Shown in pieces: positions 1 to 64,000 of a stretch of 64,000 nt of DNA. Every line of letters begins with the position of its first letter. The first letter of the stretch is position 1. The notes under the pieces are model-generated. The model made no database searches, was not told the DNA's origin, and was given only the letters and a program-made list of their open reading frames with translations. The translations under genes were made by a program, and so were the position numbers. Source of the stretch: Apostichopus japonicus (lineage: Eukaryota > Echinodermata > Holothuroidea > Aspidochirotida > Stichopodidae); assembly GCF_037975245.1 (NCBI RefSeq), contig NC_092579.1:1789001-1853000 (forward strand), written 5' to 3'.

Positions 1-274
1 AATCCTCTGTATCTTTTACAGGGATAAACAGCTTACAGCCCATTACCAAATGAGACTTTGGATTAAACAATGGCTGTTTATCTCCAGGCATAATCTTATC
101 AAATTAACTGAGCTATACAGTAGATCAAGATTCAAATCAGCCCTTAGGCTTGATTTCTGTTTGATTAATTTGCATCAATAAATACAAATGTAAACATAAG
201 AAAGAATTGAATGTGTAAGGTCATATACGTGAGGTCATGGAACATTATTACATTATAAAAATTAATTGTGATAT

Positions 275-489
275 AGAATGTGCAAAAGTAAGTTGGCCTC
301 ACATTTTGATCCTCTAGAGCAGGATCTTCTTCAGAGGCTGAATGACAAGTTACAGTCATTTTCTTTTACAATATTTGTCCCTTCTGTTAAGTTAGTACTG
401 TAACTTATCATTCAGCCTCTGAAGAAGATCCTGCTAGGATCAAAATGTCAGGATTGAAACGTCAGGCCCTCTTACTTTTACACATTCTC
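275..489. repeat. Inverted repeat with hammerhead-like motif in both arms
   Basis: The arm at 275-355, read on the minus strand, matches 397-489 on the plus strand. Both carry GCCT-CTGAAGA, a GATCC...GGATC hairpin and AGGC. On the plus copy GCCT (415-418) and AGGC (464-467) can pair around the core, and GAAACGTC is at 456-463. This resembles a type I hammerhead ribozyme (CUGANGA, stem II, GAAA, stem III, NUH) with one extra A after CTGAAGA. The minus copy has AAAATGTG in place of GAAACGTC and looks dead. A third copy lies near 13.8 kb. Such motifs are known in Penelope-like elements and retrozymes; assignment to either is inference. Confidence 0.55.
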
Positions 490-1515
490 TTACAAAGGCT
501 CTCTAGTGGATAAGCAGTTTGCTAACAGGTTTGTTTTATTTTGTGGTATAGACAATTTTAAGTTTATGCCTATATCAAAACAGTATACTTTAAATAGCTA
601 CACAGCTGCTGATGCAGTAAATAGATTCATTGATCTAGTGCAGTATCTCTGATGTCTCCATAAGATGATGTTTGATGAAAAGATTTACAGAAGCGTCTAG
701 CAGGACTAGATTCTCCTTGTTCAGATACCGACTAACTAAAAAGTCCTGACTCATTTGATTCCAGGACAAATCAATACCTCAAAGGTACAGTGTTTACTGT
801 TTACTGTATGCAGTATACCTTGTGGAATTTCTATGATAGGGAGTTCATTTAATTAAGTCTTGAATATCAAGAAGACAGATTTCCAGCACTTAAAATCAAA
901 GAATTTTAGCAATTACTAGTTGGTACTGGATGTATGTACAATGCAAATTTTCACGTTACAGTATATATAATTGACTTGTTTATGCTGTACTCGTTCTCAT
1001 GCCTTTAGGAAACTTGAATTTAAAATCACCCGGGTCTTGCTATGCTTGGTCATATAGTGTCTTTCAACGCTGACCTACATGAAGTGTGTACTGTATACGC
1101 TTGTGTTCTCTTATTTCTCTTAATATTAAAGTTTAGTGGGTTACTTCATTCAGTGGATGTAATTGTGACTGTGTCTGTTAAATTTAAGTGTGGAGAACAG
1201 TTTATGTCTTGTCAGTGTAGTGCTAAGTACAGAGGTGGCACTGCTGTGTTAATTAGTAAAATTTTCCACTTTGCAAAATGTGACAATTATGTACAGTACA
1301 TCATCACTGCGATAAACAGCCATTCGATTTGCAAACTAAAAAAGCTGTTAAGAAGGGCAAAGCCACAATTATCAAACTGGGTAAAGAGAAAACCAGGTGT
1401 GGTTTTAATTTATAAACAGACATCTAGGTTATTGTACACATGTATGCAATAATACAATAGAATGCTTGGTAAATAATTGTTGTATATCACCAGGATCTTA
1501 AGTAAATAATAACTG

Positions 1516-1568
1516 GCCGTACGTACGTACTGTACGTACTTACCTACCTACGTAATTACGTACGTAGG
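1516..1568. repeat. ACGT/GTAC-rich palindromic simple repeat
   Basis: A run built of overlapping TACG, GTAC and CTAC units, largely self-complementary and able to form hairpins. It contains one TACTGTA heptamer. No function is evident. Confidence 0.6.
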
Positions 1569-3949
1569 CCCTCTGCAGTATGTACACTGCAAACAGGACT
1601 TGACGTGGTGTCTACACAACTGGTACTGTTTGCATTTTGCTTGGTGACCTCAATTTGTAGTTTGATCATCTTGATGAGTCTCTAGTGGCAGATATGTGGC
1701 ATTTGGAAGCAGCAGTCTATGGACAGTGGATATCCCCATCCCCTTAGAGAAATGTCCTACCTTTCAATGGTGCTTAGTTTGCAAAGTGGTGTTGTTTGTA
1801 TTTTGCAACTTTTGAAGCAACTTTTGGTCAAGCGTTCCCCTCATTTTTCCCCACAAATTTTTCTGAAGTCTTTGGCGATCCCTTGAAATAATACAGATCG
1901 CTTGTGATCAAATTGACATCTAGGGAAACACAATTGGATTGGATCTTTTGCAGAGATGAAGGTACCCTAAAGATGTGGGTCAGATTACACAGATCAACTG
2001 GAAATACATTCATAAATTTTTTAATTAATTTAGTACTGTAAGTGGAAAAATTGGTGGCACGTACTGCATAAAAGCTGACCTTTAATATGTGTATCTGAGC
2101 ATTAATTGGATGATGGAGAAATCTAAAGTATTACGCAGTGCTGCTATTAGGTTGATCACCAGTACGTACAGATCTGTTAGAAAAGTCATCTTCCTCAGTA
2201 TCTGGTTGAGGCATTGTAGGAAACACAGGTTGCTGGGTAACAAAGAGCTAACGATTAGAATAATTACAAAGCTGCCAGTGAGAGTACAATAGATCCAGTA
2301 ATGAGCATTGCCGCCTTATTTCTTTGTTCAGAGGGATTGCCATTTAGATGGCTCCATCAATTAATGGGTATATCCCAGTTTCTGACCACTTTGATTTCTC
2401 ACGTACTAATTGATGTGCAGGTATAAACCCTAAAAAATTAATTTCAAGTGAGCTGGTTTTGGACACAACCATTACAAAAATGTTGTTAATTATCTAAAAA
2501 CTGTTAGGGAGTGGAGAGTGTAGTCATACAGGGATTCTGTAAGGACACTCCTCATGGTTATTGAGTGAAGCACGTCTGTAGTACTCCTTAAGTGTCCTGC
2601 AGTACTTACTGTATGCTTTGGTGTGTACAATAGTGGCTCATTTAAATCTCTTCATTAGAATGCTGCATTTCACTTACAATTACATTGTCCTCACTGCTTG
2701 CCATAAATTGACCAATGCTTCTCAAAAGAAAAACACAACTGTGCATGCATTGCATGGGATAAAACGTTGTCAGTGACAGTGACCATAATCATACTGTATA
2801 TTTACTGCTATATAATGAAAAGAATAAATATGTGTTCAAATTTTAAGACAAATTCCCACAATTATTGTCGCAGGTGTCAGGTTTACAGCACTACTATCTG
2901 TACAGTACAGTAGTTTAGTGTGTTTAGTGTTTACCATAAACTTCTATTAGTCGTTCAATTTGTTGTTGGTCCTGCATCATGTGACCTGTCACACTGTACT
3001 GTACATTTACGTTGCTCTGTAGAGTATGTGACTGTTGTGACATGTCTTCCCCCTTCAAAGAACTGTTTTGCTATTGATAGTGCTGATGCTGTGAATGGCA
3101 CAGTCCCTTCTCTCTTTCTAATATTGACTTACAGGAGGAGTACAGTAGATGAAGTTCTGTTTCTTGAAATCCCATCAGTTAACCATCGCTAAGCTACTGT
3201 ATAATTATGTTTTACTTTCGGATTAGCAACATGGACTTTTGCATTCATTTTTGCAGTGATCCAGTATTTCTCAAATGAGCATCTGTGGAAATGGGAATAG
3301 TTGTTTAATATGTACAGTATCTCATTCAGCACATCAACAAGCAGCAAGGCAATGTTTGTAACTTAGACATAAATTCAGATATGAGTAATTCAATAACATG
3401 GTGGGGGGGGGAAGGGGTGGGGATATTATAATTTCAATATTATATCCACAGGAAGCTTTCTTGAATTCTTCAGCAATCAGTACATGTAAACGTTTGCAGG
3501 CTTTACTGTAGACACAAGCATAGAGTTAAATTTAATATATTGTACTACTGTATGATAGGCCTACATGCAAACTTAGTACAATACATATGGACTTTGTACA
3601 GTTCAGTAGACCTACCATTGAAACCATTGTTCCAATATCCACATAATACAAATATACTATGTTTGCAACAATTTGTATAAATAAACAATTAATAAGCTGA
3701 ATGATGGATGGATATCTTCATTTATTGATTCCAATGATGGATATAATCAGTTAATTGTTTAAGTTAGGTAAAATTAATATCATGGTTATAGCTTGGTTTG
3801 TTTACTCAGCCCTTTGAAAAGTTCAACATCGTTTGTCTTTTGTTCCCCCACATCACATGACTACTGTAATTGTTGCTTGTTTGGTTGTGAATTCATGAGA
3901 ATGTCAGGGCTGTATTCCATGGTAGCAGTGTGTAGCATTTAAGATTATC

Positions 3950-4110
3950 GGAAAAATGAGAGGGAAATGGGGGAAGGGTGGGATGAGGAAGGGGTGTGAG
4001 AAAGGGTAGGGGAGTGGATGGGGAATTTGATGGCAATGGCATGTATTACTGAAAGTGAAAGGGAAAGGGGGGAGAAAAAGGAGAAGGGGGAAAGGAAGGG
4101 GTGGTGAAGC
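3950..4110 (+). repeat. Purine-rich (GA/GGGGA) tract
   Basis: The plus strand is strongly biased to purines, with many G runs of three to five bases, in two blocks near 3950-4025 and 4055-4110. It lies about 1 kb upstream of the SLC25A10 start codon. Such tracts can adopt triplex or quadruplex structures. A promoter role is only possible, not shown. Confidence 0.5.
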
Positions 4111-4289
4111 AGGAAGCCAGGATTTCGGGGTTGGTGTAGTGGGAAGAAATATTTCGGTAGCTCATTGGCTGCAACAAAGATGTAACCATTTCAATAAACA
4201 ATGTAAATGAATAATATTTTTTAATGAATTTATGTTCCATGTTTTTGACGTGTCACAATGTGTAGCAATGAAGATCTTTTATGTTAGTT

Positions 4290-4640
4290 TTTAAAAAGTT
4301 AGATCTTAAAAAGTTAACTTTCTGTTGCTTGCAAGTGACGTTTTGTTCGTGTCGCTACAAAATGCAGACAGTAATGAAACGTGCTACCTTGTTATCTTTA
4401 GCTGGACCTGAGATGTCCATCGCTGTATCGTTTGTACAGTGTGCTGTGGGAATTGACCGCTGCTGTATGTATGGACTGTACACTAGTGTCTAATTACCGA
4501 TGGTAGCAAGCTGTGTGTGTATTTTCTGGGATCTATGGTGGTGTTTAACACTTCTGTTACACCTCATTCGAAACTAGGTCAAATTACCGGCATTAGACGT
4601 TTCTTTTAGCGCGAGTCTGCACACCCTTTCAGTACCATAA
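4290..4640 (+). repeat. Left copy of an inverted repeat flanking SLC25A10
   Basis: This segment reappears, reverse-complemented and diverged (roughly 80-85% by eye), at about 11190-11515 in the last SLC25A10 intron. Shared landmarks, in order, are GTTAACTTTC, GCTTGCAA, TGTCGCTACAAAATGCAGACAG, GACCTGAGATGTCCA, TGTACACTAGTGTCTAATTACCGA, CACTTCTGTTACACCTCATTC and TTACCGGCAT. No clear terminal inverted repeat or target duplication is visible. Being about 400 bp upstream of the coding start, it may overlap the promoter or a 5' untranslated exon. Confidence 0.75.
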
Positions 4641-5012
4641 TAGTATAATGTGCAATCAACCTTCTGTAGTCAGAACTCTACATATGGTTTCGCTGGTTGA
4701 ACTATAGTCGCTGGTTCAGTATATGATTTAATCATTTCTATAGACATGTAAGGTAACCATAAAACATGGTTTATAATTTAACTCTAGAGCTGCTCTGTAG
4801 TAGCAAGGTCATGTACACACAAGAATAGTGCAGGTTACAATTCACAATACAACATTGCATACTGTACATTAGGAGTTTCGCCTGTACAGTAGGAATAAAT
4901 CTAGTCGGAATAAATGCTGGTTGAATGAACCTGTAACGAAAAACATGTATATACTGTACATACTGTATGTTTATCCTTCATCTTCTGATTTAACTTTCAA
5001 CAGGATATCGCT

Positions 5013-8000
5013 ATGGCAGTGGAGGAGAGGCGAATAGCCAGATGGTATTTCGGAGGACTCGCTTCTGCGGGTGCGGTTTTCTTTACTCATCCGCTGGATT
5101 TAGTCAAGGTTTGTTGGTATTAAATGTTTCTTCCAGTCAGGACTCTAAACCTGGTTTTACTTGTAATATTTAACATCGCTATCAAACTTGATGTCCAGGG
5201 ATATAGATAGGATTGGATATGGGTTGTAGATTGTTTAAGAACCACTGTATTCTTTTGATATCCTTTGGTGAGTTAATTGAAACCGTTATCCCTTTTCAAA
5301 ATACACATTTTAAACCCTTTTTATTTGGGGGGGGGGCGAGGATTTAAAACTCATGAAGAAATAAACATTTCATTGTTTTAAATAGTGACATAAAGTGAGG
5401 GGAAGAGTCCTGAACTGAAACAAAGTGAAAAAAAAATTGATGAAAATACGAGACATGAGCATAGCTTGTGATGATCCTCAATAATGTGTTTTGTATTGCT
5501 GTTTATAATTTATTGTTGTAATTATTGCATATGTATTACTGTACTGTATTGTATATGTATTGATATTGTATGTATTGATATGTATTACTGGTGTTATGTA
5601 TTGCTGTTTATAATGATGTGATTCTGGTCTTCCTCCTTTGAAACTAGGTGCACTTACAAACACAGCAGAAGGTAGAGATGGGTGCCTTCTCCATGGGTGT
5701 GAAGGTTGTTCGAAATGAGGGTGCCTTGGGTCTCTATAATGGGCTGAGTGCGTCAGTTCTGAGACAGGTGAGACTCATGAAACTATTGTTACAGTATTTG
5801 GGATGGGGAGGTGCGGAGGTTGGGGTAGGGGGGAGAGGAGCGACTATGAGAAAGCTGATACTTTTTATTCATGATGACAGGATTTGTATTTAAGTTTCCT
5901 CATGAATAAAAATATTCCATATTCCATGCTTTAATATGCTGAGGTATTCAAGTCACTGTTAGTGCCTATGGTTAAGGACGATCATCTTTATTTGTTGGTG
6001 CTTTTCAGAGGTTGTAGTGTGATGGAGAATGACGTACCAGCTTCCTCTCCACCCATCAAGTAAATCAACAGGGATGCGAAACAGAAGTATTTAATTGTCT
6101 CCATTGCCTGCAGTCTCCTCTCTCACTTAAAGTGATGATCTGAGGTAGATGCAGGACTGAAAAAATGAGTGTATCTTTTAACACTGAATGTAAAATCATT
6201 GTTGATGGTGGTCATGCATTGTAAGGCTGATTCTTGAAATCCTTTGTTTACTGAATGCCATTATTTTCTTTGTTTCAGCTGACCTACTCCTTGACCAGAT
6301 TTGCCATTTATGACTCCTTAAAAAATAGAATATCAGAAGGAAATAATGATAAACCACTTCCATTTTACCAAAAAACTATGCTGGCAATGTTTGCTGGTAA
6401 GTACAGTCTTTGTACCATGTGTGTAAACCCCCCCCATCCCCCATCCTCACCCTATCCCCCATCTGGGTAGTATGGGACTAAAGCCTCATGGATCAGTCAC
6501 CTGTTTATCATGGTATTTGTTTTATTTGCTCAGATATAAGGTTAAGACATTTTGCTAGGAAATCAACGGGTTCTGTAAGGATCAAACCTTCAGACCCTCT
6601 AAGATTTGAACAAATAAATAGATGGTTACTGACACTGTGCTTGATGATAGAAAGAGAGATATAAAGTCAAGAAAATCCTTCTTCAAGAACAAGAAACAGA
6701 TCAGCAAATTATTTGTAAACAATGCAATGTGTAAAAAGCGTTTTGAATATATAGGTCTACCTGGGAATGTCTTACTAGGACCTGTTAAAGTAATATGACA
6801 CTTGGCTGTTAGTCTGTTACTCGTGTTTAATGTATAATTGGTCACATCAGAATGCTAAGTTTCTCTTGAAATCCCTTCCCCGCAATGTTCTGGGTTGTAA
6901 CGATTGAAACTGGGATGTGATCTCTGGTGACATAGTATGAAAGTAACTGTTACATCTGACTGGTGCTCCTAGCAAAAAATGACTATATAGGAATGGCCAC
7001 CAACTAAGGGCATGACAGCTCAGTTGGTAGAGTGCTGGGCATTATCATAATAATTTCTTGCACTTTCTTCTGTTATAATTGGTCATGTCAGGTATCCAAT
7101 GTTTTATAAAATCTTTCATATTTATCCTGTCCCAGGTGCTATTGGTGGATTTGTCGGCACTCCTGCCGATCTTGTAAACGTTAGGATGCAGAATGACATC
7201 AAAATATCCGTGGACCAAAGAAGAAAGTGAGTTCTTGGGCTGATTGTAAATGTTTTTCTAAAATAATCACAGTTAATGCTGAATGCAGTTAGTTTGAAGC
7301 AAAATAGAGGGATACCATTCATTGATTGAAAGAATCACATTTGGAGTTGTAATATTGAAGACATAATTACAACTTCTGTACTCCAATGATGGAAAAGGTG
7401 TGCTATCACAGTAACTGTTTAGATTTTTATGAATAAATTGTGAAGAATTTGCAAGAATCAACATTTTCTTGAGTCTTGAGATACTGTTTTGGTCTGAAAG
7501 ACAGTTTATGATTGAATTTAATATGAATGTTAATTGTAGAAGTTAAGGAAATATATTTAAGAAAACTCTAAAAGGAACATTATGGTCCAACTTATAGCTT
7601 TTCTTGTGTGTCACTTGCAAACTTTACTCATAAGGAAGCAGCAGGGTAACTTTATCTATGGAGGTCAGAGTCAAGATGAAGTGATTTTGCGAACAAAAGC
7701 AGGTCTCCCATTAATAGATATGAAAAAAAATTAAAAATATGTATCTTAATTCGTTAATATTTTCTGTATTGTGTCTTTCTGTTTAAACTTGAACCATTTA
7801 AGTTTGTCAAATATGTTAGTTATAAATGATATCTTGGTCTCCACTTTTCTTTTTTTTTGCATGACGTGTGCCTAATAATCAACTTTCAATCTTTCTTCTT
7901 TTACTGCAGTTATAAACATGGCCTTGATGGGCTTTACAGGGTCTATAAAGATGGTTAGTGACAGCTTGTTTGAAAGTAATATTGGTTTTATCATCAAAAA

Positions 8001-11000
8001 TGGGAAGCTTTCTGCCACCCATCATTCTTTCACATGTATGGCATCTATTTTATTTCATTTTATGAATGGTTTTCTGTTACTTTTCTGGAAGGACCTATCT
8101 GTATTGTATATTCTGTAACAGTTAAGCACTATCCCCTCATTATTACCCCCCCCACCAGCCCCACCCAGACCATGGGTAGCTTCTCTTCATCCCTCACCCT
8201 TCCTGATGTACCAATCTGTTATGTACCAGACACACTTGTCTTGACTGATTTCCATGTCAGTATTCTACCAATAGCTGTTACCTACAGTGCAGTGTTATAC
8301 AGCCCTATGCTGTATATTAATGTATTGTAATGTTAATTTACCATTACCAGCAAGTTAAACAGCTGAGTGATCCTTAGTATCAATAGTACCCTGCTTAAAT
8401 ACTGCTGAGTGTGTGTTTCCGTTTGACTGTCTAAGAGAGGGTCTGTACCACAATATTGTAGTTTAGTAGCAGCAGTTCCTTGCATGAATATTATGCTGTT
8501 TGACTAGAATTCATGCAGAGCCTCTATTGCAAAGGTGTAACTTTTGATGGTTCATTTTCTGGAGAGTAGCTTATTTTACCAACTAGGATGGAAGATATAC
8601 TCTAAACATAATTTTATACCAAATAATGCACTTAGTCATAGACTAGAGTGAATATATTTTCATAGCCCTAGTTAGATGGGCAGCAAGGTATTGGAATGCA
8701 GAAGGCTGTTTGACAGCATCTCGTTGAAATGCTGTGAACCAGCTACAGCGACTACTGTATTACGCATTCGAGAAGAGGTACTCAAAGATGTATCTAGCCT
8801 AGCCTACTGCATGTCAGAACGGGGACTTAAGATGTACCCAGCCTAGCCTCAACTCATTTGCTTAAGAAATGGGACCAAAATTTTTTGTGTAATAAAAATC
8901 CAGTATTAATAGCTATTGCATGCTTTATGGACAAGACGGAAAACATGTTTGTACAGAATATGATTATAAAATGGACCCCCTCCCCCTACATTTAGAAATT
9001 GTCTTAAATTGTCTGACCTGGTTTGATGATGGATGCATAATCAAACTTACAATTTGTTTTGTTTAAGAGGTAGTTTTTAATCATTCCATTTCTCTCTTTC
9101 CGGCAGAGGGTGTCAGGAGGATGTGGTCAGGGTCTTCCATGGCTGTAGCGAGGGCCATCTTTATGACGTTCGGTCAAGTGGCTCTGTACGATCAGTACAA
9201 ACAAATGCTGATACAGTCAGGATACTTTCATGATACAATCAGTACTCACTTCACCGCCAGTTTCCTTGCTGTGAGTCATTCTCTACAAAGTCTTTATAGA
9301 TCTCATTCATCAGCCTTGTCTCTTTTGACAAACAGGATGGAATCTTGAAAGGGTATCTATTAAAATATCAGATGGAATTATGAGATGTTTTGGTCATTGG
9401 AAACAGAAACCAGACACTACCCTGTCCCACCCCCACCTTCCTTCTTTGATATAAAGAAATCTTTCACCAAACTGGCCTTAAGAGTGCGAGCTATGTTTGT
9501 GCATATCTCTGGTAGCTGAAGGATAAAATAATATAATGAAATTAGCTGATTTGTTTGGGAAATAGAAAAAAGAAATAGTTTAAACTGTGTTGCAGTTCTC
9601 TCCATGTTTTGCCAGTTTAACCCTATCGTCTCTTTTACTACTTTATTCTACTTTGTCCCTTTCAGTTACCTTCTCTTGTATTGTTCCTACTGTCAACTCA
9701 GACTCTCTTATTTGTCCATCTATTCCTTGGATCCTTACATCTGTTGCTAGTCCCTGTCCATTCCCTTATGCCATTTCATACACTTTACCTCTAATAGCTG
9801 CGCTGTCCATCATGTTAGTTTGTTCGATTGTCTGTTCATTCATACTTAGTAAAGATTTCTAAATCCTATTGTTCCATTCATGTCAGCTGACCGTGGTTAA
9901 TCCTGTGAGTAACGCACGGTAAAATTACGGGGCATCACTTTAATAAATCTTTGGTTATATGTAACCAAAAATGTTTTGTTTTATGATTTTTCCCCCACAC
10001 AAATGGTAGTGTATGAATGAACGGGGTTAATCAACGGTCTAGCGTGCGTTACTCACATGATTAATGCACTCCGGGTGTTAATGCTATCGCCGGATGCACT
10101 CGGGCTCCGCCCTCGTGCATCGCTTGCATTATCCCCTGATCGTGCATTAATCCTGTGAGTAACGCACGCTAGACCGTTGATTAACCCCTTATTCATCTGT
10201 TTGCTTATCTGTCTTTACTTGTAATGGTCACTGTATAGTTTCAACAGGATGCCATTGCATCCAGTCACTTATATAACTACTTCGTGTGTCTTAAAACTGA
10301 TTCCTGTCAACAGGATGCCAGTGCACTCAGCCCCATATATAAATATTGCTTGTGTCTTTAGACTTGATTCCTGTTCAACAGGATGCCATTGCATCCAGTC
10401 CCATATAAAACTATTGCTTGTGTATTTAGAACTGATTCCTGTTCAACAGGATGCCATTGCATCCAGTCACGTATATAACTACTTCTTGTGTCTTAAAACT
10501 GATTCCTGTCAACAGGATGCCAGTGCACTCAGCCCCATATATAAATATTGCTTGTGTCTTTAGACTTGATTCCTGTTCAACAGGATGCCATTGCATCCAG
10601 TCCCATATAAAACTATTGCTTGTGTATTTAGAACTGATTCCTGTTCAACAGGATGCCATTGCATTTAGTCCCATATATAACTACTTCTTGTGTCTTAAAA
10701 CTGATTCCTGTCAACAGGATGCCAGTGCATTCAGCCCCATATATAAATATTGCTTGTGTCTTAAAACTGATTCCTGTTCAACAGGATGCCATTGCATCCA
10801 GTCCCATATATAACTATTGCTTGTGTATTTAGAACTGATTCCTGTTCTACAGGATGCCATTGCATTCAGTCCCATATATGACCATTACTTGTGTATTTAG
10901 AACTGACTTTTGTTGTTGTTGTTACTTGTTTTCAGGCTGTTTGTGCCACAGGTATGACCCAACCTCTAGATGTGATGAAGACGAGACTAATGAATGCTCC

Positions 11001-11880: not shown

Positions 11881-12054
11881 CTGGTGGAGTCCATTAGAAG
11901 TATCTTAAAGCATTTCGTCTCATTGATGTCTTTAAACCACCGATGATTAACTCCAGACAGTCGGAAGAGGCAGGTACGAGGAGGATGTGGATCATGTGCC
12001 AAAGGAGTATCAGGTATATGATAATGGAATGACAAGGTGTGTGCATTTACAAGA

Positions 12055-13423: not shown

Positions 13424-13431
13424 TCTATGAG

Positions 13432-17775: not shown

Positions 17776-17779
17776 ACAA

Positions 17780-30975: not shown

Positions 30976-30999
30976 AAATTGCAACACACTACTCTGCTT

Positions 31000-34128: not shown

Positions 34129-34139
34129 AGTAAGTAAAC

Positions 34140-50846: not shown

Positions 50847-53800
50847 GTAACTAGCCTAGCTCAAGTTGGTACATACTGTTGTATTCATAGCATAAGTTAG
50901 GCTAATATTGACTGAAATAATGTTAGGCCCAGACCTTTGACCAGAGGAAAATTGTTTTGTTGAAGGTGATCATATCTTAGTCCTAAATGTTGTTTAATTG
51001 CAGAATATTCCGCAACTCTTGAATCCCACAGATTATGAAATCCCTATTCTATAAACAATGTATTGTCGTTCTCGAAAAGCCAGTTGTGTGAGTTGAAGGG
51101 TATTCTGCAATTGGTCCAAGTTAGGCCTAGCCTACAGGCAACATTAGAAGGATGAGTAAAGCAAGACCACGAAAACTCAAACGTCAATTTCTTATTTTTG
51201 TCAAAATCTTAGCGAATCTCGAAGAAATATTTACAATGTTACTCACAAACAAAGTAGATGATTCCCATAACATTTCCTGAAATTTCGATCATAATCCATC
51301 CACTGGAAAACAAAAACACATCTTGATTAAAGTTGGACTTTTCAAGATACAAGGTTGCAAAGCTGCAGACTAGAAGTCGAACATCTAAACCAATATACCA
51401 AATCATCAATGTCACATTAAATTTACAAACACTTGTCATTGATACAGTATTTATTAGACAAAATGACTGAAAATGGGTGAAGTTAGGTGATTCAGTCAGA
51501 CAATAGTGTTTCCAATAAGGTAGGCAGTTTATCGAGATAGAATACCATGTTTTTTTAGTTGGGCCACGTTTTGTTTCTTTCGATCAAATACACTGGAATA
51601 CAACTAGAGAAATTACAAATTCTGTACTTTGTGATTTCATCGTCAGAAATTAAATATAAAAAGTTTCAGTTCCAAGGGTTGAAATACTTTTGTAGCTAAG
51701 AAAAAGCTTAAATTGATGTACCTCAAGGCAATTAAAAGTTATTCAACCCTAGTCATTCTTAGTGCTTACCTATAGACAAGAACATTCTAAATCTGATTAA
51801 TACGGAGGCATCCAGATGACTTTCAGTCAAATGTTGTCATTTCTGGCTAAGCACGGATATTTTCAATTGGCATTGAACATCAAGGCTTTTTGGCAATGTC
51901 ATAGTTTGGTTTGCTATATACCTATTCAGCTACTGTAGGCTATCCTACTACTAGTTACTATATTGTACTGTGTAGGCCACCATAGTGTAGGAACTATGTT
52001 AGGATGGTAGGCTCTATTGGTATAATATTTATATATTCTAACTTGATGATGCTAAGAGCACAGTTGTTCTCTTAGATTCCCATGTTGGTATTCAAAGTGG
52101 GGGTCGCGACCTTTTGTTTGGAGGGATTCCAAACAATTCAGAAGAACGGAGAAATTGCCGATATTTGTGGGAAAAAATGGAATAATCTTGAACATAAAAT
52201 TACATAAGAAACTGCAAAATATTATCATTACCATTAGCCTTTTGCACTAAAACACCCTTAATCATATAGTAATTTCTCATAGGGGAGGAGGATGGTGCTA
52301 CCTTGTAGAAACCTTCCACAAATCACACCAACAGCCACTGGAGTTTCACCAAGATGATCAAATGTGCAAATTGGAGTCTCCAAGCAAACAAGTTTGAAAA
52401 CCAGGGCTTTTGAAGACCACAGTTATGATGGTTGCTCTGATGTTGCTGTTAGGTGTGGTTCTAATCCTCAACTTAATGATTTCAACCATGGTTTGATCAA
52501 CGTTTACCAGATTGTGACACATTACACTGGAGTCAAAAATGTTGAGCCAAGAAAAAATGTCCATATCTTTGCACATGCATTTAAGTTGACAAATTATAAA
52601 TTTGGTAAATTAATTAAATTTTTCATGAAATTGCTGCCAAAAAGAGAGTGATGTTCCCTTCTGCTGTGTCAAACTTAAATGTTATAATTAAGGCTGTGAG
52701 GTAACATAATTATTACATTGGAAAAACAAACCTGTAAATAAACATCATGGCTAGTACAGTGTCTATAGAAATTCACTAGAACCCAGAACTGTATGTGTAT
52801 GCAAATTTTGCAGATACTCACTGGCTAGACCATAGAAAGAACATGTTACAGCTCAGTGCCATTCAAAAGTATTCTTAGATTCAAACTCAACAAATTTTTC
52901 CTACATTTGTACCAGGCTGTTTAGAACTTGAAGATACTGTATAGATTAAACTTCTACCAGTCGCTAGCTAGGCCTAACTAAGCACACATTATGAAGCAGC
53001 AAAGCGATTCCTGCAATTAGCCTTTAAAAGTATTTTGATTGGAGACTTCGAAAAGTCTATCTGTGAGTCAGTATAATAAAAAAAAAAAAATTGGTATTTA
53101 ATTCCCAAAACTATGGTTGTTGACTTTCATATATAAAGTCCTGATATTTGGCACTCCTAGCAGTGGGAGGGGGGGGAGGGGGGACTTCTTCCTTTGGAAT
53201 ACAAGTGCCTGGTGTAGGCCGTCATGATCTCGGCATAACTTTGTGAATGTTACAATCTAGTATAAAGTGACTTTGTTGTATATATGTAGAGTTATGTAAA
53301 CACAAGCCAAGAAAGAACATACGTTACAGACATAAATTTGGACCTCAATGCTGGTAGACCTCCAATCAGGCATTGTGGAGGTACAGTGGCACAATCAGCA
53401 TACATGGTTTGTGTATCTATGTATTGATTTTACAACCAAAAGGTGCTGGATTTGTATGTTTGTGTGACCGGTTCTTAATATGTACAGTTAGAAGGAAAAG
53501 AACAAAGCTACAGTAACATTGTTTCAATAAAAAAAGCTGACATCATTTACTCAGCTTTGAAGAAATGTTGCATTTTTAGGTTATTGATGAAATTGATAAA
53601 AATCTTCAACTAAAAACAATATGATTCATATTAATTTACATAAATTTGATCCATTGGCTTCTGACATACTGTATCTGTATACCAGCTACTGTACATATAC
53701 AATGCATATCATCCTGTTCCCATATTCAGTAATGTGGTATATAGATAGAAATAGCACCAAGGTTTTTGTGACTTGTAACAGAAAATAAATATTATTGATT

Positions 53801-55439
53801 TATAGGTTTGTGTATGTCCCAGTAATATACATGTATACAGCTGTAGACTGCAGTATATATTGCACTGTAATAGTGGTCTTGAAATGATTTTGAGCTCAGA
53901 TATCTTCTTTTTTGTTATTCCCTTGCAATTAGCATGACGGCATCTCTATCACAATCAGTGATTGTTGGATACAGTAAGTCATGTGATCATATGGAATACA
54001 TGTCATTAATCTATCCCTTTAATATTTAACTTCCCTTCTAAAGAGCAACCCTGGAGATGTTTCCCAGAACTCTCTAGGCTTTTATTTCAGTCAGTTTGAG
54101 AGATCCAGTTTCCCCACACCTATATATATATAAATAACCAGTTAAGAAATTGTTTAAGCATGTTTGATTTACTATGTATGTACACGTTACTATCTTGACA
54201 GAAATTACAGAATCAGGTGTTCTTTTCTAGATAGTACACTTGTACTGTAGGCGAAGTTTACAGTACTTGGAATATTAGACAGAACTTTGTTAATTACAAA
54301 TAGTCATTATACTTAAGAGATGTTCTGATTCGAGCAGCAAGACATTTTTGGAAAAGACCTTGACAATTTTGCAAAAAGCAACTCAAATGAGACTCTTTAT
54401 GAAATATTAAAGTATGTAAGTACTGTGAATTTCCCCTTTCACTCTTTGGAACAACTCTGTAATTATTAGTGTGCACAGGAGGATAACGTCTAGGGTCTGC
54501 TTAAATCCTGCCAATGATTGTTAACCATGTAAAATTACATCCCATAAAAGATAAAAGTCTCTTTCAAGGTTGTTAAATTTGTGTCTAGGCCTTGGAAAGA
54601 TCTGATATATTTCTCCAATCAGGTCTCAAAATCATTACTTATTAAGTAAAGGCAATCTATACACAATTATCTTTACACAATTTTTCATATATTTGAACTT
54701 GAGTACTTTCCTCTTAAGAGAAAGAGGGAGTGAAAGTTGAAAATGTTCTACTCTTGAATTTGAAGAGTTCTAGATGTTAGAGCCTTCTTTTCCTCTAAGT
54801 GTTAACTCCTCTGAAATCCACTTACAGGACAAGATGTGTATTTTGTACCCTCTACTGTGCCCGACGCTATGGAAAGACCATCACACCATTTATTTCCTTT
54901 AATTTCATAATAAAAATAAAACGCTGGCTGAATGTAAACATTCCAAAACAGGATGTTGATTGTCACTATTTATATAGTGACCAAAGTGGCTATATAGTAA
55001 CATGCTAGAAATTACAGTACCTGGGCTAAATAATTTCTAGAAGATGACATAGGCTGTTGTGTAGTACTGTATTTAGCTGCTTCTTACAATGAAATTAAGG
55101 TCTTACTGGAAGAGATAACTTTAGAGTTGAACTGTGTGCTGTCACCTGACAGGAAATCACACTCATTAGATATCCTTGTAGAGGTTTCCAACCGCTGTAG
55201 TGCTATCAGGACACTATTGTACAGATACAGTACAGCGGTATGTACACAGTACTAAGGTCATCAAATGTGACCTGCTAATTTCAGAAGGTCTTACAGGTTG
55301 ACCTAGCAGTGATTGCCACAGAGGTATAGTTGTCTGCTTTATGATAACAATGTTTTAAAAGCAGAATAGTGAACATGGAGGAAAGAATGACAGGAACTAG
55401 GTCAACTTTAGTAATTAACTTAAAGGACACTTGTGATAC

Positions 55440-55860
55440 ACCATTAAGTACTGTACATGATATTATAACAAGCAGAGCTACAGACTTTAGCATGCAAATC
55501 TCATTGTACAAATTCAGGTCTGTCAAGATTGTACTGTACATGTTACAGGTACAGCCTGTACTGTATGTACTCAGCCGTACTGCATACTATGATTTGCTCA
55601 GTAATGTGTTACAGTACAGCTTGATATTACAGCTATTCAGTGTACAGATTTACAGTATCATGATAGTACATACACACATACAGCCTGTACTATACACACT
55701 CTACCATACTGTATTAACTATGAGCTCCACAGTAATGTGTTACAGTACAGCTTGATATTGCAGCTATTCAGCATACTATACAGGTACAGTATGAGAATTG
55801 TACATGACACTTACATCCTGTACTCTACGCACAATAAAACAGGTACATTACTGTACACAT
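55440..55860. repeat. Cluster of TACTGTA/TACAGTA heptamers
   Basis: About nine heptamers within 420 bp, often nested in palindromes such as GTACTGTACATG and ATTACTGTACAC. Parts of the segment are also duplicated: TAATGTGTTACAGTACAGCT, continuing as TGATATT(A/G)CAGCTATTCAG, occurs at about 55603 and 55733. No coding or RNA gene is evident. Confidence 0.65.
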
Positions 55861-56933
55861 AGAGTTCATTGACTTATAAGAGAACGGCAGGAGAGTCAAT
55901 GGTGTGGGTCAACCTGTTAAGTTCACAGAAAGAGAGATTTTTCTCCAAGTTCATTTTTGAGCAGTAGTGTATGTGGCAGGAACACTTAGGTAAAAGGCAG
56001 TTTCAACAATCCTCATCCTAACATCTAGACAATTTTTTTTTTTCCTTCTCCTCAAGAGGTCAAAATCTCAGTTCATTATACTGACATCATAGATATGTCC
56101 ACTTGAGTACTTGGACCAGCCTTCCCAACATATAATTTTTTAAATATTTTTTTGATCATCTGTTGGTGAAGGAGAACTCTTACAGTAAAACACACTGATA
56201 TCCTGACGTTTGGTAAAACTCTAGTTCTTGATGGAATTACAATAAAGCTTGTCAGTTGTCTGTGTATTCAATGGCCTATGCCGTTGTTCAGATGCTCTGC
56301 AAACAGCGAAACTAAAACTCCCAACATAAGTAATTAGAAGGCGAATAAAGGATACCTGAAAAGTGAAAGTAAAACAACACACAAAATAAATTTACTGACA
56401 GTACTAAATGTAACAAATTATATACTTAAGACTTTTGATTGAAAAATGGTTGAACCTTTACTTTTATCAAACTTTACTTCTCAGGTTGGGTTTAGGGAAG
56501 GTCACTTGCCAGAAGTGATAGTATATATGTTGTTCTACTGTAGGCGTGTAACAAGATCTTAATACTAAAGCATTTGAGACAATTATCATGGTATTGTTTG
56601 GAGTTAAGAAAAAGAACTTTGTGATCAGGTAAATTAGTTAATACTTTGTTAAAGAGCTGTGTATGAAGCAAATTAAAGATTGGTTTGTAATTGTACATTA
56701 AAAATTAAATGCTGCATGTAAGTCAAACAAAATTGCAAAATTTTAACACAAGTTTCTCATTCTGTCTTCAAAGTTTGATTTCAAATGTATCTGCAGTACG
56801 TACAGGTGTAGACATACTGTAAAAAACATCCAGTACAAAATACTGTAGGCCTACCCTTTGACAAGAACTTGTCATTGAAACCACAAATCAATTATTTTAC
56901 CATTTAACACCCTATTCAAGTTGCTTAGGATAT

Positions 56934-57105
56934 CAAGTTACAGGGGGTGGGATATTCTTCCATGTTACAGGGGGTGGGGATTGGGATATTCTACCACGTT
57001 ACAGGGGGTGGGGATTGGGATATTCTACCATGTTACAGGGGGTGGGGATTGGGATATTCTACCACACTACATGGGGTGGGGATTGGGGTATTCTACCAAG
57101 TGATA
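56934..57105 (+). repeat. Minisatellite, ~36-bp GGGGTGGGGATTGGGATATT unit, five copies
   Basis: Units read GTTACAGGGGGTGGGGATTG then GGATATTCTACCA(C/T). The first copy is shorter (GGGGGTGGGATATTC) and the last is diverged (ACTACATGGGGTGG). The plus strand is G-rich, with several GGGG runs per unit, so quadruplex formation is conceivable. The 60-codon frame across it is a by-product of the 36-bp period. Confidence 0.88.
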
Positions 57106-60100
57106 CTGTAGATCGTGTAAGTGTTTTCCTCAATTAGGCTTGCCTACAGTGTGTGAATGAAGTCTGTGGTAGCTTGGCTGTACTGCCCAACCACTGCCAA
57201 CTGTTACAGAGTTGCTTTATCTAGTCTTCCTACACTGTCAGGAAACTTTAGTCTGTATTCAACAGACCAGAGAACTTGACAAATGTTGATTGCAATCTTT
57301 TAAAATAATTTTAAAGATATATGCGGGTCACACATGTACAGTATATATATCTTGACTTGAACTAATAATAATAATAATCAATCTGCCAAATTATTCTGGG
57401 TAAGATAAAAAAAACTATAAAAAAATGGTAGATTTGACCTAACTGTATTTACAGTTAAACACACATAGAGCACAGTACACTGTAAATTATTACTAGTAAA
57501 CGACTACCGTATATATATATATATACTGTATTGCCATACATAGCACAGTATAGATGACTACATCAATATCTCTGTAGTTTCCAAAGAATCTGAATTCTTA
57601 TCGTGTATTAATTATGGAAATAGTTTCAGTATATACGCTAAGTTAACACTGAGTTGTTCATATATGTTTTGGTTTCTATGTTTTCTCACTTCACTTTCTT
57701 TTTCCTTTTGTGAGTATATTTCTCTGTCTCAATTTGGGAAACAATGAAATTAATGGTACTGTATTGTGGAAAATTGAAACAAGATTCTACACCTTTACTG
57801 ACAGAGACTTACAATGTTTCTGGCCTACAAGTACAATATCTCATCCCACCTGCAATGATAGAGCTTTTCAACACTTCAACCCTTACAGTACACAACTGCC
57901 CAAAATCAAGTTCCAGCGTCCTACCATTCCTTCTCCTTTTATAGACACTGTGCACTTCCCCCCTTCCCCCTTTCCTATCCTGATCCCCTTCTAACACCCT
58001 ATTTCTTTTTGAGCAATCATATTTTATTGTCTGCCATGGATTTACTGTAACTTGTTCTACTGTACAATAGTTGTCTGACATTCAAACATCTTCCATTTTC
58101 TTGGACAATGAAATATCAATATTCATTTCCTTTTGCATGCATATATTGCTGTCGGTACTGACTTATTGTTAACTGCACAGTACAGTATGTGTCTGTTGTG
58201 TGTAATTGTCACTATGAGTCTGGTGGTGGAAACTTAAAGCAGTATCGTAGTAAAAAATGAATTCATTAGATTCTCTCATCTCATACAGTCTGTCACATTC
58301 CTACAAGTTTGTAAGATTTCAGTCTTACCTACCATACAAGAATTGGTAACATGTGGGCACCTGGAGACCCACTTTGTCATCACTGCCCAGTGCCCACAGC
58401 CTCTTGCTGTTGAATCTTCCTTTGAGGCTTCTACGTACAGGTGTATAGTACATAAAGTACCCACAACTTATGCTTGACACTCACTGTAGTGGCTAGATTG
58501 ACCTGACTGACCTCTTATGGTGACCGGTCACCTTTGATCAACCTTCGTCCTCATTCTACCATCTAAAGTGTCTAATCGGTGGATGTAAGTGCTGCATCCT
58601 ACAGCACAGAAATTGCTGTTTGGTAGGTCCAATACTTCACAAAATGAAAGAAATATATACATTTCTACAGTACTTTATTTTTTGTCTGGAGGAGTGAACC
58701 CAACTATCATCATTACCTTTAATAAATTATGCTAGTGTTTAATACAACAAACAATTGCCCCAAAGAATCTTGTATCCTTTTGGGGATGGGGGATTGGGTG
58801 GAGGATGAAGGTTTAAATGTTTCATAGACAGTGTCCTGTCATGTTGTCAATGTTTAAATACTGTCATACTGTGGTGCCATTAAGAAGTGAAACCTTTTAA
58901 CCATTCATATTTTCAAGTTACAGAACATGAACAGTGTTGTTAGTGCAGAAAATGTCATTACTAGCTCATATAACAACAAAAAACTCAATTATTTTAGGCT
59001 CACAATTGGCAATTTAACCATATATTTCAAGTAAATTTAAAGCAGTGAATAAGGAAAGTAATTTCAGGTATGAGTGTTCCAAATGCCCTTGAATGATGTC
59101 ATAATTCGACATGCTCAAGTCTCTGGTCTCTTCAGTAACATCATAGTACTCCATGGTACAGTATCGCTGAAAATGGAATGAGATTTTTCTCAGAGCTCTG
59201 CATTAGTAGAGTGATCCTGTCTCTGTTGGCAACCGGATCAATGTTGATGGCTTGATTTACTTCTCCTTTAATTAATCAACGTGAGATTTGTCTTGCTTTG
59301 CAGGAAGTACCTGTGCTGTACATTCGCCAATTATCTGTACAGTCAGCAAGTATTTTTCTTTGTTGTATGATAAAGTATATATGTGTATTATTAACTATAA
59401 ATAGAACCTACTTAAATTGGATATGAAAATTTCATTGTAACAGAATTTTACTGTTAACAACCAACAATAAAATCCACATTGTATTGGTCATTGTATGTGT
59501 GCAATAACTGGATTACCTTTTTTCTTTCATGGGTGTTCATTGACTCTTAGTCTTTAACCAAATATTTAACAATGGATTTGAAACTTCAGTTTCAAGTTTA
59601 TAAACAAACTTTTCAAAGTGATCGGCCATCTTTCATATTTATCTCTCTCTAATTCATCTGTTGATGTACTGTACATAAATTTCAACTGACCATTATACTA
59701 AACCACTTCACTAAATGGGTTTACTTTTACTACCCTGATATAGAACATTGCAGGTATTTTTTTTTCTTTCTTTTTCAAATTTTCATTTTCACTTGATACA
59801 TGTACAGTACATGTGAAAATGAATTACATCGTCAGTGACACCTTCAGCAATGGAGCAGTGAAACTAGTGTTAAATACTGTTGCTGATATGTAATGTATTG
59901 TACATGGTATGTACTGTATGGTATGTACATGTGTCCTGCAGTACTAACATGCATTGTAACTTGTATAACAAACAGAGATCTGATGAACTCTAGTAATACT
60001 TAGTTTGTTACCTCAAGTCTGGAAAATACATGATTTAACTCGATTACAGGATTCGGTCTCCAAGTCCTTTGACCGATACAGTAGATATTATGGACATTCA

Positions 60101-61839
60101 TTCTCCCGTTATACACTGACTGTTCACAAAGTTAACTTAATGAAGCGGTCAAGTTGCATTTACCATGCTCCACTATTACCTGAATTTGGCTTCTTTATTC
60201 ACATAGATTCAGAAAGACTGAAAGGTGATGGGTATCGTCCCTGAGGAGGGTCGATAGGTGTACAGTGCTAAAATGTTAATTAGTGAATATACTGGGTAGA
60301 TGGGAAAGTGTATTCGATATAGTGGAGACACGGTACCTGTTGATTACCCAACCCTGGGAGTTTGGGGGTATTTTATCCAGGTTGGTCTTTGAGGGTCAGA
60401 ATAAAGTTGTTTTTTTTATGGGGCTTTAAGCAACCTGATTTTGCCCTTAAGTAGTACTGTACTTAACATGAATATTTGCTCATCTCTTTTTGAAGCCACA
60501 AAAGCACAGTATAAAGGTTAAAGGATGTGCACTCGATATTGAAGAAAACATAGCCTGAAATTTCATGATCAGATAACCAGAATTACTGGATTTTGAAAGC
60601 AATAGTGAAAAGTACAGTACCTACAGTATGTACTACTGTACTGTAGGTCAGTCAAATTAATATTCAGTCATGGAAAACCTGCAAAACATAAACAGTTTGT
60701 GCATGGGCACAAGGTAAGTATTATAATATAAAACCTTGAATGATTTGACATGGAGGAGGAATCACTCTGCCAGTGGCTTGTCATAAAATTGTAATGTAGC
60801 TGCATTAGAGTACAGTATGTGTAATAAACCCAAATTAGCTTGAATGATTACAACTTACAGCACTTACATGATGTCATGACTCATGGCAGTATGAATGTAT
60901 TTCTGTTGGCCTTGAATATCACTTGAAGGCAGCACTGTTTATAGTGTCAAATTAGTAAACTTGAGAAATAATTTTATACAGTGCAGAATTTTTGTGCAAG
61001 AATGCAGAGTGTCTGATCCCATAATGAATTGTATTAAAGGTACCATTAAGAACTTACCTAAGTACGGTAAATCATTCTAGGTGCAGGGTATTTTTTTTTG
61101 TATAAAAGAGCATAATTAATAGCTGAATAACAGCCTGATCCTAGATATATGTGCAGTTTTATTGCCATTGTATGAAGTACAGTACCACCATGCTGGTAGT
61201 GTGTATGTATAGTCTGTTCTGATCAATGTAGCTTCCGTTTGTTGAACCAAGAGCATTAAATTTATTGTACTGTTGTACAAACTCTACTTATAGCTACTGT
61301 AGTCATACTATAGAAGCAGCCATTTTGAAAAGTCTTAACATATAACTACATTGTTCTTGTAACATATATGTAGGACTGACAATAAAAATGGCCAGGGATT
61401 GGGAGAAACAGCCCAGGGTCAATAAGAGAGACCGGAGACATGGAGTGAAAAAGAATTCATTCTCATTCTCATCTTTATATACTTAAAGAAAAGGGGGCGA
61501 AAAGCAAGGAGGTGATTCACTGACAAATTTGTGTACTGTAGGTCCGACCTGGCTCTCAATACCCCTGAACATACAGTATGAGGTAGGAGTTATATTGTGG
61601 AGTTTGGTACTAAATTTACAAGACTTACATCTAATGCTGCACATTGAGATACAATACCTACTGTACTGTTAGAATGGTAAGCCAGGGAAATATTTACCGG
61701 TTATCACATCCGGAAAATGCTAAAAATGGGAAACTTGTCATAGAAGCAAAAAGATGTTAAGAACTGTTTGTATACTGTACCTGACACAACATGATATTAC
61801 TTTTAAACAGACCAAATTCAAGAACCTTCAAAGCTACTG

Positions 61840-62400: not shown

Positions 62401-62884
62401 AGTTTTTTTCCATCCATAACCTTTTTGAAGATTGTCACCAGTCACACATCATGTTCGACCTCATTGCATGTCCTATGGATCATTGCTTTTGTAGGCGATT
62501 CTACGTCACGGTCCACAATATCCGAAAGCCCCACTTTTCAAGGTTTTAAGCCCATTATTTGTTGAGAATTTGAAAATTCACATTTCTCGTGAATAAAAAT
62601 CACTTCAAAACATGCCCATAATGTTGCACAAAATTCAATCTATGGACAACCAATAGGGAAAAACCTCCTTGAACCCCTAATAGACAGGTACAAATTGCAC
62701 AAGTAGAGGAAAGTATGATGAAGAATGTTGGTGATGAAATTTTCTAAAATTCAGACACAGTTAATTTATTGGTGTAGAAATATTGCAACCTCTTATAATG
62801 GCTATTATAAAACTTGGTTGAAGGAAATGAAAAATAGCAGATATTTCCGATATCAGGTATATCGAAACCGAACACTACACACAT

Positions 62885-62940
62885 AGGCGTAGGTCCCGTA
62901 GGAGGCGGGCTGCAGCCCCCACCCCCCCCCCCGCAACCAA
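62885..62940 (+). mobile_element. Truncated GGCGTAGG-type MITE end
   Basis: TAGGCGTAGGTCCCGTAGGA, then GGCGGGCTGCAGCCCCCACC and a C run, resembles the left end of the hAT-type MITE at 13043 (GGGCGTAGGAACC, then a G/C-run block with GGCGCCAGCCCCCC). Only the end is recognisable. Confidence 0.45.
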
Positions 62941-63424
62941 TCTTGTTCCTATTTTTTCGGGCACCTACTGAGAGAAAAATAAATAGCAATGAATAGCTTA
63001 AAAATGATCTCCTTGGTAATTAAAATAAAGTTGTAAGATTGGCTGACATTACTACTGTAAAAGAGAGTTTGACATAAATGGATCTGTATGCTTTTTCCCC
63101 ATCTACATAAGACATTTGGTTGTTTACATTAGCATCCGGCGGTATACTGTGTTACTTTCACGGACCGTGCGGTACACGATGCCATGCAATGTAATGACCG
63201 ATGCTTGATTATATGATATTAATATCGATATGTTGAACGCGCGCTTTGCGCACAAAAAAATTTTGGCTTTTTTTTCAGGCAAGTCGTTACAGCCCCAAAT
63301 CCAATTGGGCTCCGCCTTCGACTACACACATAGACAGTTTTTGAGGCTGTTCATCGTGGAACAGGCATTTTAATGCTCACTGATATGATGTTATATCTGC
63401 TCTTTGCTTTACAAATTCGAACAG

Positions 63425-63600
63425 GCATGTAGCGAGTAATTGCCAAGGGAGGGGCGAAGCCTGTATGCAAACTATCTAAGCGAAGCGCTACCATGGGTTG
63501 GCGCGAAGCGTACAAGAAAAATTTTGGCCGAAAATGCCTCCCAGATCGCTGGAAATGACACTTCCCAGGCCTTGTAAGTTGCACCTAAGCATTGTCTATT
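63425..63600 (+). mobile_element. MITE-like repeat, copy 2
   Basis: Shares CTATCTAAGCGAAGCGCTAC, then CATGGGTTGGCGCGAAGCGT, ACAAGAAAAATTT, CTCCCAGATCGCTGGAAATG and ACACTTCCCAGGCCTTG with 62205-62400 in the same order and orientation, at roughly 80% identity by eye. A run of ten or more G follows at about 63639-63650. No coding capacity. Confidence 0.65.
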
Positions 63601-64000
63601 TTGAAATTACTAGTGATGTCATAAAGAAAATTTGCTCGGGGGGGGGGGGGCGGTCGCCCCTTCCCGAAATGCGTCATGTTCCCGACGATCCCGTCGAGTT
63701 CAAGACCAGCCACAGTTGGTTCCATATATTGTACAATTGTTTAAGGCGTCCATACACACACACGCGTTATGATAGACCATATATAGTATTTATATAGATA
63801 CATTAGTGAGAGAGGGAAAAAAACGTCAAAAATGGAGTTGTTGGTGTAAGGGGTAGGGTGAGGCGCACACCCCCTCCGTAATCCTTGATCTGTGTATATA
63901 ACCTGTGTATATAATAGGGATCAGCGCTTAAACTATGACTGTTCCTCTTTCTCTTCCCGAAGTCTTGGCTATCTTCTACTCCCTCCCTTTCTCCTTTTTC

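What the first reader, a model, noticed from the sequence alone, without database searches (positions are those of the whole stretch)
1..64000. TACTGTA/TACAGTA heptamers look like mass excision scars of a Tc1/mariner-type transposon
Seen: the heptamer (one sequence and its complement) occurs about 100 times by eye. My rough expectation from base composition is 10-15. Where near-identical tandem units can be compared, the version with the heptamer always has exactly five extra bases at a TA: GGATTA-CTGTA-CAAC against GGATTACAAC (near 17535 and 17765), GGTA-CAGTA-TGG against GGTATGG (near 17755), ATTA-CTGTA-CC against ATTACC (near 45783), and CATA-CTGTA-TAAC against TATATAAC (near 45733). Known: Sleeping Beauty-type excision leaves TA + three transposon bases (CAG/CTG) + TA, that is TACAGTA or TACTGTA. 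Inference: the genome has been bombarded by such an element, whose copies have mostly left. Density is uneven: over half the sites lie in 50-62 kb, and I saw none in 8.8-15.5 kb.
Basis: partly seen in the sequence, partly recalled or inferred. Interest (0 to 1): 0.92.

Follow-up and report, generated by a model that had tools for sequence, protein, structure and literature searches.

The report
Transposon excision scars in sea cucumber
A stretch of sea cucumber DNA is peppered with a five-base scar of the kind that cut-and-paste "jumping genes" leave behind when they hop out, so passing transposons may be a steady source of small mutations there although the elements themselves were not found.

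Summary
TACTGTA/TACAGTA occurs 109 times (64+45), the commonest 7-mer in the window, against about 20 (order-2) or 12 (order-1) expected. All four cited comparisons (five sites) show exactly +5 bases at a TA. The carrier gene in the window matches Apostichopus japonicus, a sea cucumber.

Outside the window, dispersed copies show the same +5: 4 clean and 1 doubtful among 68 distinct indels of 2 bases or more, one between copies with 35 substitutions in 1391 bp. The genome holds 361,456 sites, 0.54/kb. In 15 non-satellite sample loci the excess is about twofold, so this window, at 1.7/kb, is an outlier.

Of 32 TA-NNN-TA classes two stand out at 3.3-3.4x: C-W-G and, unexpectedly, G-S-C. Both fit annealed three-base overhangs with a central mismatch, which points to TA-targeting cut-and-paste excision.

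No donor with CAG ends was found, and one array test (ATA repeats) went against the reading. Best reading: genuine excision scars, perhaps of the order of 10^5 genome-wide. Mass genome-wide bombardment is only partly supported.

The parts
1..6200 (.). hot zone 1: 26 heptamers, 4.19/kb, 48.5 per 1000 TA; upstream and first introns of the dicarboxylate-carrier gene
   Evidence: exons
50000..61830 (.). hot zone 2: 53 heptamers, 4.48/kb, 48.7 per 1000 TA; contains and follows a BTB-domain first exon
6200..15500 (.). cold zone: 1 heptamer in 9.3 kb
16819..17800 (+). tandem array (period about 71-75) whose units give empty-site comparisons
17535..17541 (+). scar TACTGTA; sister units read GGATTACAAC
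   Evidence: 0 mismatches to the empty unit
17752..17758 (+). scar TACAGTA; sister units read GGTATGG
17764..17770 (+). scar TACTGTA, second scar in the same unit
45593..46054 (+). tandem array with empty-site comparisons
45739..45745 (+). scar TACTGTA; sister units read GATATATAAC (one substitution beside it)
45783..45789 (+). scar TACTGTA; sister units read AATTACCAACC
1518..1566 (+). CGTA tetranucleotide array interrupted by CTGTA (heptamer at 1528)
5537..5548 (+). nested scar TACTGTACTGTA
60634..60645 (+). nested scar TACTGTACTGTA
2901..2912 (+). nested scar TACAGTACAGTA
51931..51942 (+). TA-CTG-TA-GGC-TA: the two scar classes abutting
56841..56853 (+). TA-CTG-TA-GGCC-TA: the two scar classes abutting
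8795..8806 (+). TAGCCTAGCCTA: second scar class, nested
29844..35225 (+). piggyBac-type transposase (DDE_Tnp_1_7) ORF and retroelement ORFs (protease, reverse transcriptase); 30-40 kb has 1 heptamer
5013..11877 (+). mitochondrial dicarboxylate carrier exons, used to identify the organism
50601..50900 (+). first exon of a BTB-domain gene, KCTD-like by recalled resemblance (open to a stop at the 100th codon; exon end not fixed)

Best explanation
Most of the excess TACTGTA/TACAGTA sites are fixed excision footprints of TA-targeting cut-and-paste transposons whose ends begin CAG, of Tc1/mariner or pogo type. The element inserts at a TA. On leaving, the transposase cuts with a three-base stagger, so CAG stays as an overhang on each flank. 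The flanks anneal C:G and G:C with an A:A mismatch that is repaired to A or T, leaving TA-C(A/T)G-TA, five bases longer than the empty site. The same logic with GGC ends would explain the second class, TA-G(G/C)C-TA. Because scars persist while insertions leave again, a few active copies over a long time could leave scars far outnumbering residents. Shown: the excess, the exact +5 at TA, its recurrence in unrelated recent copies, and the x-y-complement(x) form of both enriched classes. Inferred: that transposase made them, the repair route, and that donors are scarce now. Abutting scars (TACTGTACTGTA) suggest that scar TAs are reused.
For: 109 against 20 expected, sharply bounded. Five exact +5 sites in two window arrays. 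In dispersed copies 4 clean + 1 doubtful of 68 distinct indels of 2 bases or more, and of the 9 that are 5 bases long: L029 against L030/L031 (30-36 substitutions in about 3.4 kb), the L029 group against L039, and L051 against L049, fetched for another purpose (1 of 3 indels). Empty copies within 2 mismatches for 12 of 306 heptamers; 3 lie in the short-period repeat L007, the other 9 rows are 7 distinct events; of 597 control TA-NNN-TA sites 3 gave such a match, all in short repeats. Census over 224 kb: CAG/CTG 173 vs 52.5, GCC/GGC 49 vs 14.5, next class 1.37x. Genome-wide interruptions by any five bases: CATA arrays CTGTA 4 and CAGTA 2 of 24 five-base cases among the 100 listed of 252 matches; GATA arrays CAGTA 3 of 12, in two arrays. 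One-transition neighbours in hot zones 68 vs 27 by sample density, transversions 64 vs 43 (my sums), as decay predicts. A at -3: 90/198 vs 1197/3494.
Against: No element with CAG ends and TA duplication in the roughly 300 kb scanned for terminal repeats, nor around the Tc1-like or pogo-like transposase loci read. The excess in the sample is about twofold, and genome-wide the word is only 1.7 times as common as its backwards control. ATA arrays: C(A/T)GTA 0 of 100 listed of 535 matches. In CATA arrays CAGTA could also be a one-base insertion. Hot zones keep an excess of GTAC (98 vs 46.5) and TGTACA (28 vs 8.3) after the heptamers are collapsed, and the G at -1 seen there (62/156) is absent in the sample (21/124). 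Four other pairs (L033/34, L050/52, L035/40, L036/37) show no scar. PMC3770610 (passages) notes that Sleeping Beauty footprints are often non-canonical in some cell types, so such uniform scars are not guaranteed.
Confidence: 0.76

Rival explanations
1. Much of the hot-zone excess is local sequence simplicity: stretches rich in GTAC, TACA and related words spread by slippage and unequal exchange, with the heptamer as the extreme member and only a few true insertions.
For: GTAC 98 vs 46.5 and TGTACA 28 vs 8.3 remain after collapsing the heptamers in the hot zones; G at -1 only in hot zones; L007 and several repeats listed hold heptamers in short-period arrays.
Against: Spacings in the window are not periodic; TACWGTA is 78 vs 7.3 in hot zones, the largest excess of any 7-mer there, and one-substitution neighbours are low; exact +5 events occur in dispersed copies.
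Confidence: 0.14
2. The scars are the somatic record of programmed DNA elimination: germline inserts cut out by a TA-cutting transposase in every generation, as in some ciliates, the assembly being from body tissue.
For: Scars without donors found; nothing here tests germline against soma, and the tissue behind the assembly is not known to me.
Against: Scars are gained by single recent copies and seem to decay by mutation, which is what fixed germline scars do; no such process is known to me in echinoderms (recalled).
Confidence: 0.04
3. A replication or repair process without transposase adds CWGTA at TA, for instance templated end-joining.
For: No donor found.
Against: Two specific three-base classes out of 32, both of x-y-complement(x) form.
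Confidence: 0.06

Closest known systems
Sleeping Beauty and other Tc1-like excision footprints
   Same: TACAGTA/TACTGTA; PMC4378557 calls these the two consensus footprint sequences (passage); PMC3432063 builds primers on the same seven bases (passage)
   Different: There they are made by a supplied element in mouse or cell culture and picked out by PCR; here they would be a natural, accumulated and fixed class. PMC4378557 gives over 300,000 sites in the mouse genome; here there are 361,456 in a genome about a quarter of that size (mouse size recalled).
Zebrafish ZB element (Tc1/mariner)
   Same: PMC7913693 gives 2-4 bp footprints for Tc1/mariner and zero to three bases for ZB (passages)
   Different: Active, identified element; none identified here
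pogo-like DDE_1 elements
   Same: TA target (recalled; PMC9976928 passages, give TA target duplications for the pogo-superfamily element Passer); 33 DDE_1 matches in this genome, two of them in copies 96-99% alike over the flanks read
   Different: Ends not reached in the 6 kb fetched, so their termini are unknown; CAG ends of pogo are recalled, not tested
Caenorhabditis elegans Tc1 germline footprints (recalled)
   Same: cut-and-paste at TA, with scars
   Different: recalled footprint TACATGTA (two bases from each end), a four-base class; only 4 such sites in the window

Membership tests
Excision footprint of a CAG-ended Tc1/mariner-type element (canonical SB type) | sequence TA-C(A/T)G-TA in excess | tested here: met
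   109 in window vs 20 expected; 62 vs 30.4 in 15 sample loci
Excision footprint of a CAG-ended Tc1/mariner-type element (canonical SB type) | exactly five bases longer than the empty site, empty site retaining one TA | tested here: met
   5 window sites, 4 clean (+1 doubtful) dispersed events
Excision footprint of a CAG-ended Tc1/mariner-type element (canonical SB type) | target-site preference at the flanks (ANNTANNT, recalled) | tested here: inconclusive
   A at -3 90/198 vs 1197/3494, p 0.0016; C at -2 and G at -1 also raised, the latter only in hot zones
Excision footprint of a CAG-ended Tc1/mariner-type element (canonical SB type) | both repair outcomes, CAG and CTG, relative to the element's orientation | not testable with these tools
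   the two words are reverse complements, so without the element's orientation they cannot be told apart; the even strand counts say nothing
Excision footprint of a CAG-ended Tc1/mariner-type element (canonical SB type) | a donor family with CAG...CTG terminal repeats and TA duplication in the same genome | tested here: inconclusive
   none in the roughly 300 kb scanned or next to the transposase ORFs examined; under 0.1% of the genome
Excision footprint of a CAG-ended Tc1/mariner-type element (canonical SB type) | insertion allele at a site that elsewhere carries the scar | not testable with these tools
   no relatives of this genome are held
Tc1/mariner superfamily transposase present | DDE_3, HTH_Tnp_Tc3_2 or DDE_1 proteins in the genome | tested here: met
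   45, 25 and 33 matches, lower bounds; several DDE_3 open frames of 327-384 aa
Second scar class TA-G(G/C)C-TA | excess over composition and x-y-complement(x) form | tested here: met
   49 vs 14.5
Second scar class TA-G(G/C)C-TA | exact +5 against an empty copy | tested here: inconclusive
   0 of 61 sites had an empty copy within 3 mismatches; GCCTA interrupts one CATA and one ATA array among those listed

The most novel reading that the evidence does not exclude
The scars are not the residue of ordinary invasions but of a regular hop-through process: a small set of TA-cutting transposases (two kinds, CAG- and GGC-ended) moves DNA through the germline, or out of the soma, so often that its footprints are a standing class of small insertion mutation in this animal. 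On this reading the hot zones at gene 5' ends would map where germline chromatin is open. In the strongest form it is programmed elimination.
Probability: 0.08. Interest if true: 0.92.

Novelty: new variant of a known kind. Interest (0 to 1): 0.62.

Why it matters
If right, a readable seven-base tag records past transposon visits whose elements have gone, so element activity, target choice and perhaps germline accessibility could be measured from a plain assembly. In the dispersed copies compared here one specific +5 event makes up 5 of 68 indels of 2 bases or more, one doubtful, a large share for one cause. The general rule, an excess of TA-xyx'-TA words with x' the complement of x, could be run on any genome to look for lost TA-targeting elements and infer the first bases of their ends.

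Tried and rejected
Donor hunt: CAG...CTG pairs flanked by TA in the window (14 hits, against 10 in a distance control of 3033 pairs, none convincing); in the loci then held except L010, L016, L022 and those from L042 on (0 of 3046 pairs with 18/25 or better); general TA-flanked terminal repeats up to 3 kb, ungapped (22 hits, none CAG-ended); around the 20 Tc1-like loci (only an AT-rich pair in L041-L048); around two similar pogo-like copies (similarity runs to the ends of the flanks fetched, no element ends found). The Tc1-like ORF in L029-L031 lies inside a longer repeat in which no terminal repeats were found.

Considered and rejected: chance or composition; part of a dispersed repeat (flanks carry only weak preferences); a microsatellite (spacings not periodic). 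Heptamers in the array 61834-62204, and the one at 396 beside a hairpin arm, are not counted as independent scars. An evenness test of CTG against CAG was dropped because the words are reverse complements.

Against: the ATA-array test was negative for CWGTA. An AATAAATA-array test and a genome count of TAGGCTA never got an answer. Rfam and tRNA scans of the window found nothing. Literature: among the listings (40 of 187 shown), 21, 32, 59, 60, 103 and 104 I saw no paper on genome-scale accumulation of such footprints or on this heptamer in a sea cucumber; only listings, starts of abstracts and the passages cited were seen, and most subscription papers are not held.
Full report
What the window is. 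It is 64 kb of animal DNA, G000:C19:1789001-1853000 of a 671.6-Mb assembly in 35 contigs. Exons at 5.0-11.9 kb encode a mitochondrial dicarboxylate carrier whose translated exons match the Apostichopus japonicus protein apart from exon edges, while the next relatives differ clearly. I take it as that sea cucumber or a very close one.

The observation. The heptamer occurs 109 times and is the most frequent 7-mer. Order-2 expectation is 20.3, order-1 is 11.8. It is sharply bounded: among TA-NNN-TA sites CAG/CTG accounts for 109 of 491, the next class 37, and single-base variants number 4-37. Fifty-five of 109 lie in 50-62 kb. Per kilobase it is 4.19 in 0-6.2 kb, 4.48 in 50-61.8 kb and 0.11 in 6.2-15.5 kb; per 1000 TA the two hot zones agree closely (48.5 and 48.7).

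Exactly five bases. In the array at 16819-17800 one unit carries CTGTA after GGATTA, and the last unit carries two separate extra blocks, CAGTA and CTGTA. In the array at 45593-46054 two units carry CTGTA. All five are +5 at a TA against sister units. Other 5-base differences exist in the first array, so size alone proves nothing.

Outside the window. I fetched 200 kb at 20 places spread by hand over 17 contigs, eight short loci chosen because they hold two heptamers and 20 loci with Tc1-like transposases. I joined the flanks of 306 heptamers (window and loci, leaving out L010, L016, L022 and L043-L048) and looked for an empty copy. Twelve gave one within 2 mismatches. Three of these lie in the short-period repeat L007. 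The other nine rows are seven distinct events: w17535, w17752, w45739, w45783, L029:2684, L039:1862, and one site shared by L029, L030 and L031. Of 597 control TA-NNN-TA sites, 3 gave such a match, all in short repeats. Among three copies differing by 30-36 substitutions in about 3.4 kb, one has gained TACAGTA. Two further pairs of flanks were fetched later to look for element ends; in one pair, of three indels one was again CCTACTGTACCTG against CCTACCTG. Over all dispersed pairs used (70 alignments, 48.6 kb, 4749 substitutions, redundant; satellite loci and L042-L048 left out), 68 distinct indels of 2 bases or more include 9 of five bases, of which 5 are of the scar kind, one of them doubtful with three mismatches. 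Pairs L033/34, L050/52, L035/40 and L036/37 showed none.

Genome-wide. TACTGTA occurs 179,821 times on one strand and 181,635 on the other, 0.54/kb; the word read backwards occurs 208,554 times. Fifteen non-satellite sample loci hold 62 against 30.4 expected; scaling that expectation to the genome leaves an excess of the order of 10^5, a rough figure. The sample as a whole (0.33/kb) is poorer than the genome. A spaced pair of heptamers occurs 753 + 1262 times against 38 + 43 for its backwards control, satellites included. Arrays of simple repeats allow a test in which any five bases may interrupt. CATA: of 24 five-base interruptions among the 100 listed of 252 matches, CTGTA 4, CAGTA 2 and CAATA 8, the last a one-base insertion, as CAGTA could be. 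GATA: 12 matches, CAGTA 3 in two arrays. ATA: 535 matches, 100 listed, none with C(A/T)GTA, most being slippage; GCCTA three times in one array, CCGTA and CGGTA once each. The ATA result speaks against a uniform process.

A second class and a rule. Over 224 kb only two of 32 TA-NNN-TA classes stand out: GCC/GGC 49 against 14.5 and CAG/CTG 173 against 52.5; the third is 1.37x. In both the outer two of the three bases are complementary. That is what annealing of two identical three-base overhangs with a central mismatch gives: CAG gives C(A/T)G, GGC gives G(G/C)C. This mechanism for Sleeping Beauty is recalled; the resulting footprint sequences are in print (PMC4378557, PMC3432063; passages). 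TAGGCCTA is also in excess, 9 vs 0.5 in the window and 10 vs 1.0 in 16 sample loci. Scars of both classes abut each other in places. The second class has no empty-copy proof (0 of 61 within 3 mismatches).

Age and rate (inference). In the hot zones one-transition neighbours number 68 against 27 by sample density and transversions 64 against 43 (my sums, TACCGTA/TACGGTA counted once), as expected of decaying tags. From near-identical copies the rate is of the order of one scar per 100 substitutions: two scars over 97 substitutions counted, plus none over an estimated 70 in L035/L040 (identities). With seven bases to lose, that would hold a standing density near 1.5/kb, between the genome average and the hot zones.

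What is missing. No donor was found. DDE_3, HTH_Tnp_Tc3_2 and DDE_1 give 45, 25 and 33 matches, with open frames but no ends in what could be read. Hot zones also keep an excess of GTAC-type words after the heptamers are collapsed; old nested scars could cause this, but so could local simplicity. Both hot zones lie near the 5' side of genes, the dicarboxylate carrier and a BTB-domain gene; with two cases this is only a lead.

Verdict. The scars are real and most likely transposon footprints; their mass character is local to hot zones plus a moderate genome-wide excess; the donor is unproven.

Noticed in passing
window 8795, 8800, 13483, 49262-49274, 51122-51134 and others; sample loci: TAGCCTA/TAGGCTA (15 in window) and TAGGCCTA (9 in window) are in excess, a probable second scar class, several abutting one another.
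   Followed up: partly
L029:3077: One recent copy has a six-base TA-CACG-TA insertion against three sister copies; possibly a different footprint type.
   Followed up: no
G000:C9:37375216-37464739 (L041-L048): At the end of contig C9 a Tc1-like ORF of mostly 384 aa recurs about every 5.7 kb in tandem, with single copies on C12, C18 and C9:28.8 Mb.
   Followed up: no
window 49375-50074: Inverted arms made of short tandem GTCAAAACGTCCCCG-like units about 450-630 bases apart, perhaps the subterminal repeats of a DNA transposon.
   Followed up: no
window 10013-10196 and 297-452: Two short palindromic elements with 47- and 39-base arms; the heptamer at 396 overlaps an arm of the second.
   Followed up: no
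L010, L022, L016: Sample loci consisting mostly of satellite (distinct 12-mer fraction 0.06-0.43); CGGTACC is the most enriched word of the whole sample.
   Followed up: no
window 29844-30971: Part of a piggyBac-type transposase (DDE_Tnp_1_7, E 2.6e-49) shortly before retroelement ORFs.
   Followed up: no
L007: A locus where TACAG units recur at short period, so nested scars might seed a pentanucleotide microsatellite.
   Followed up: no
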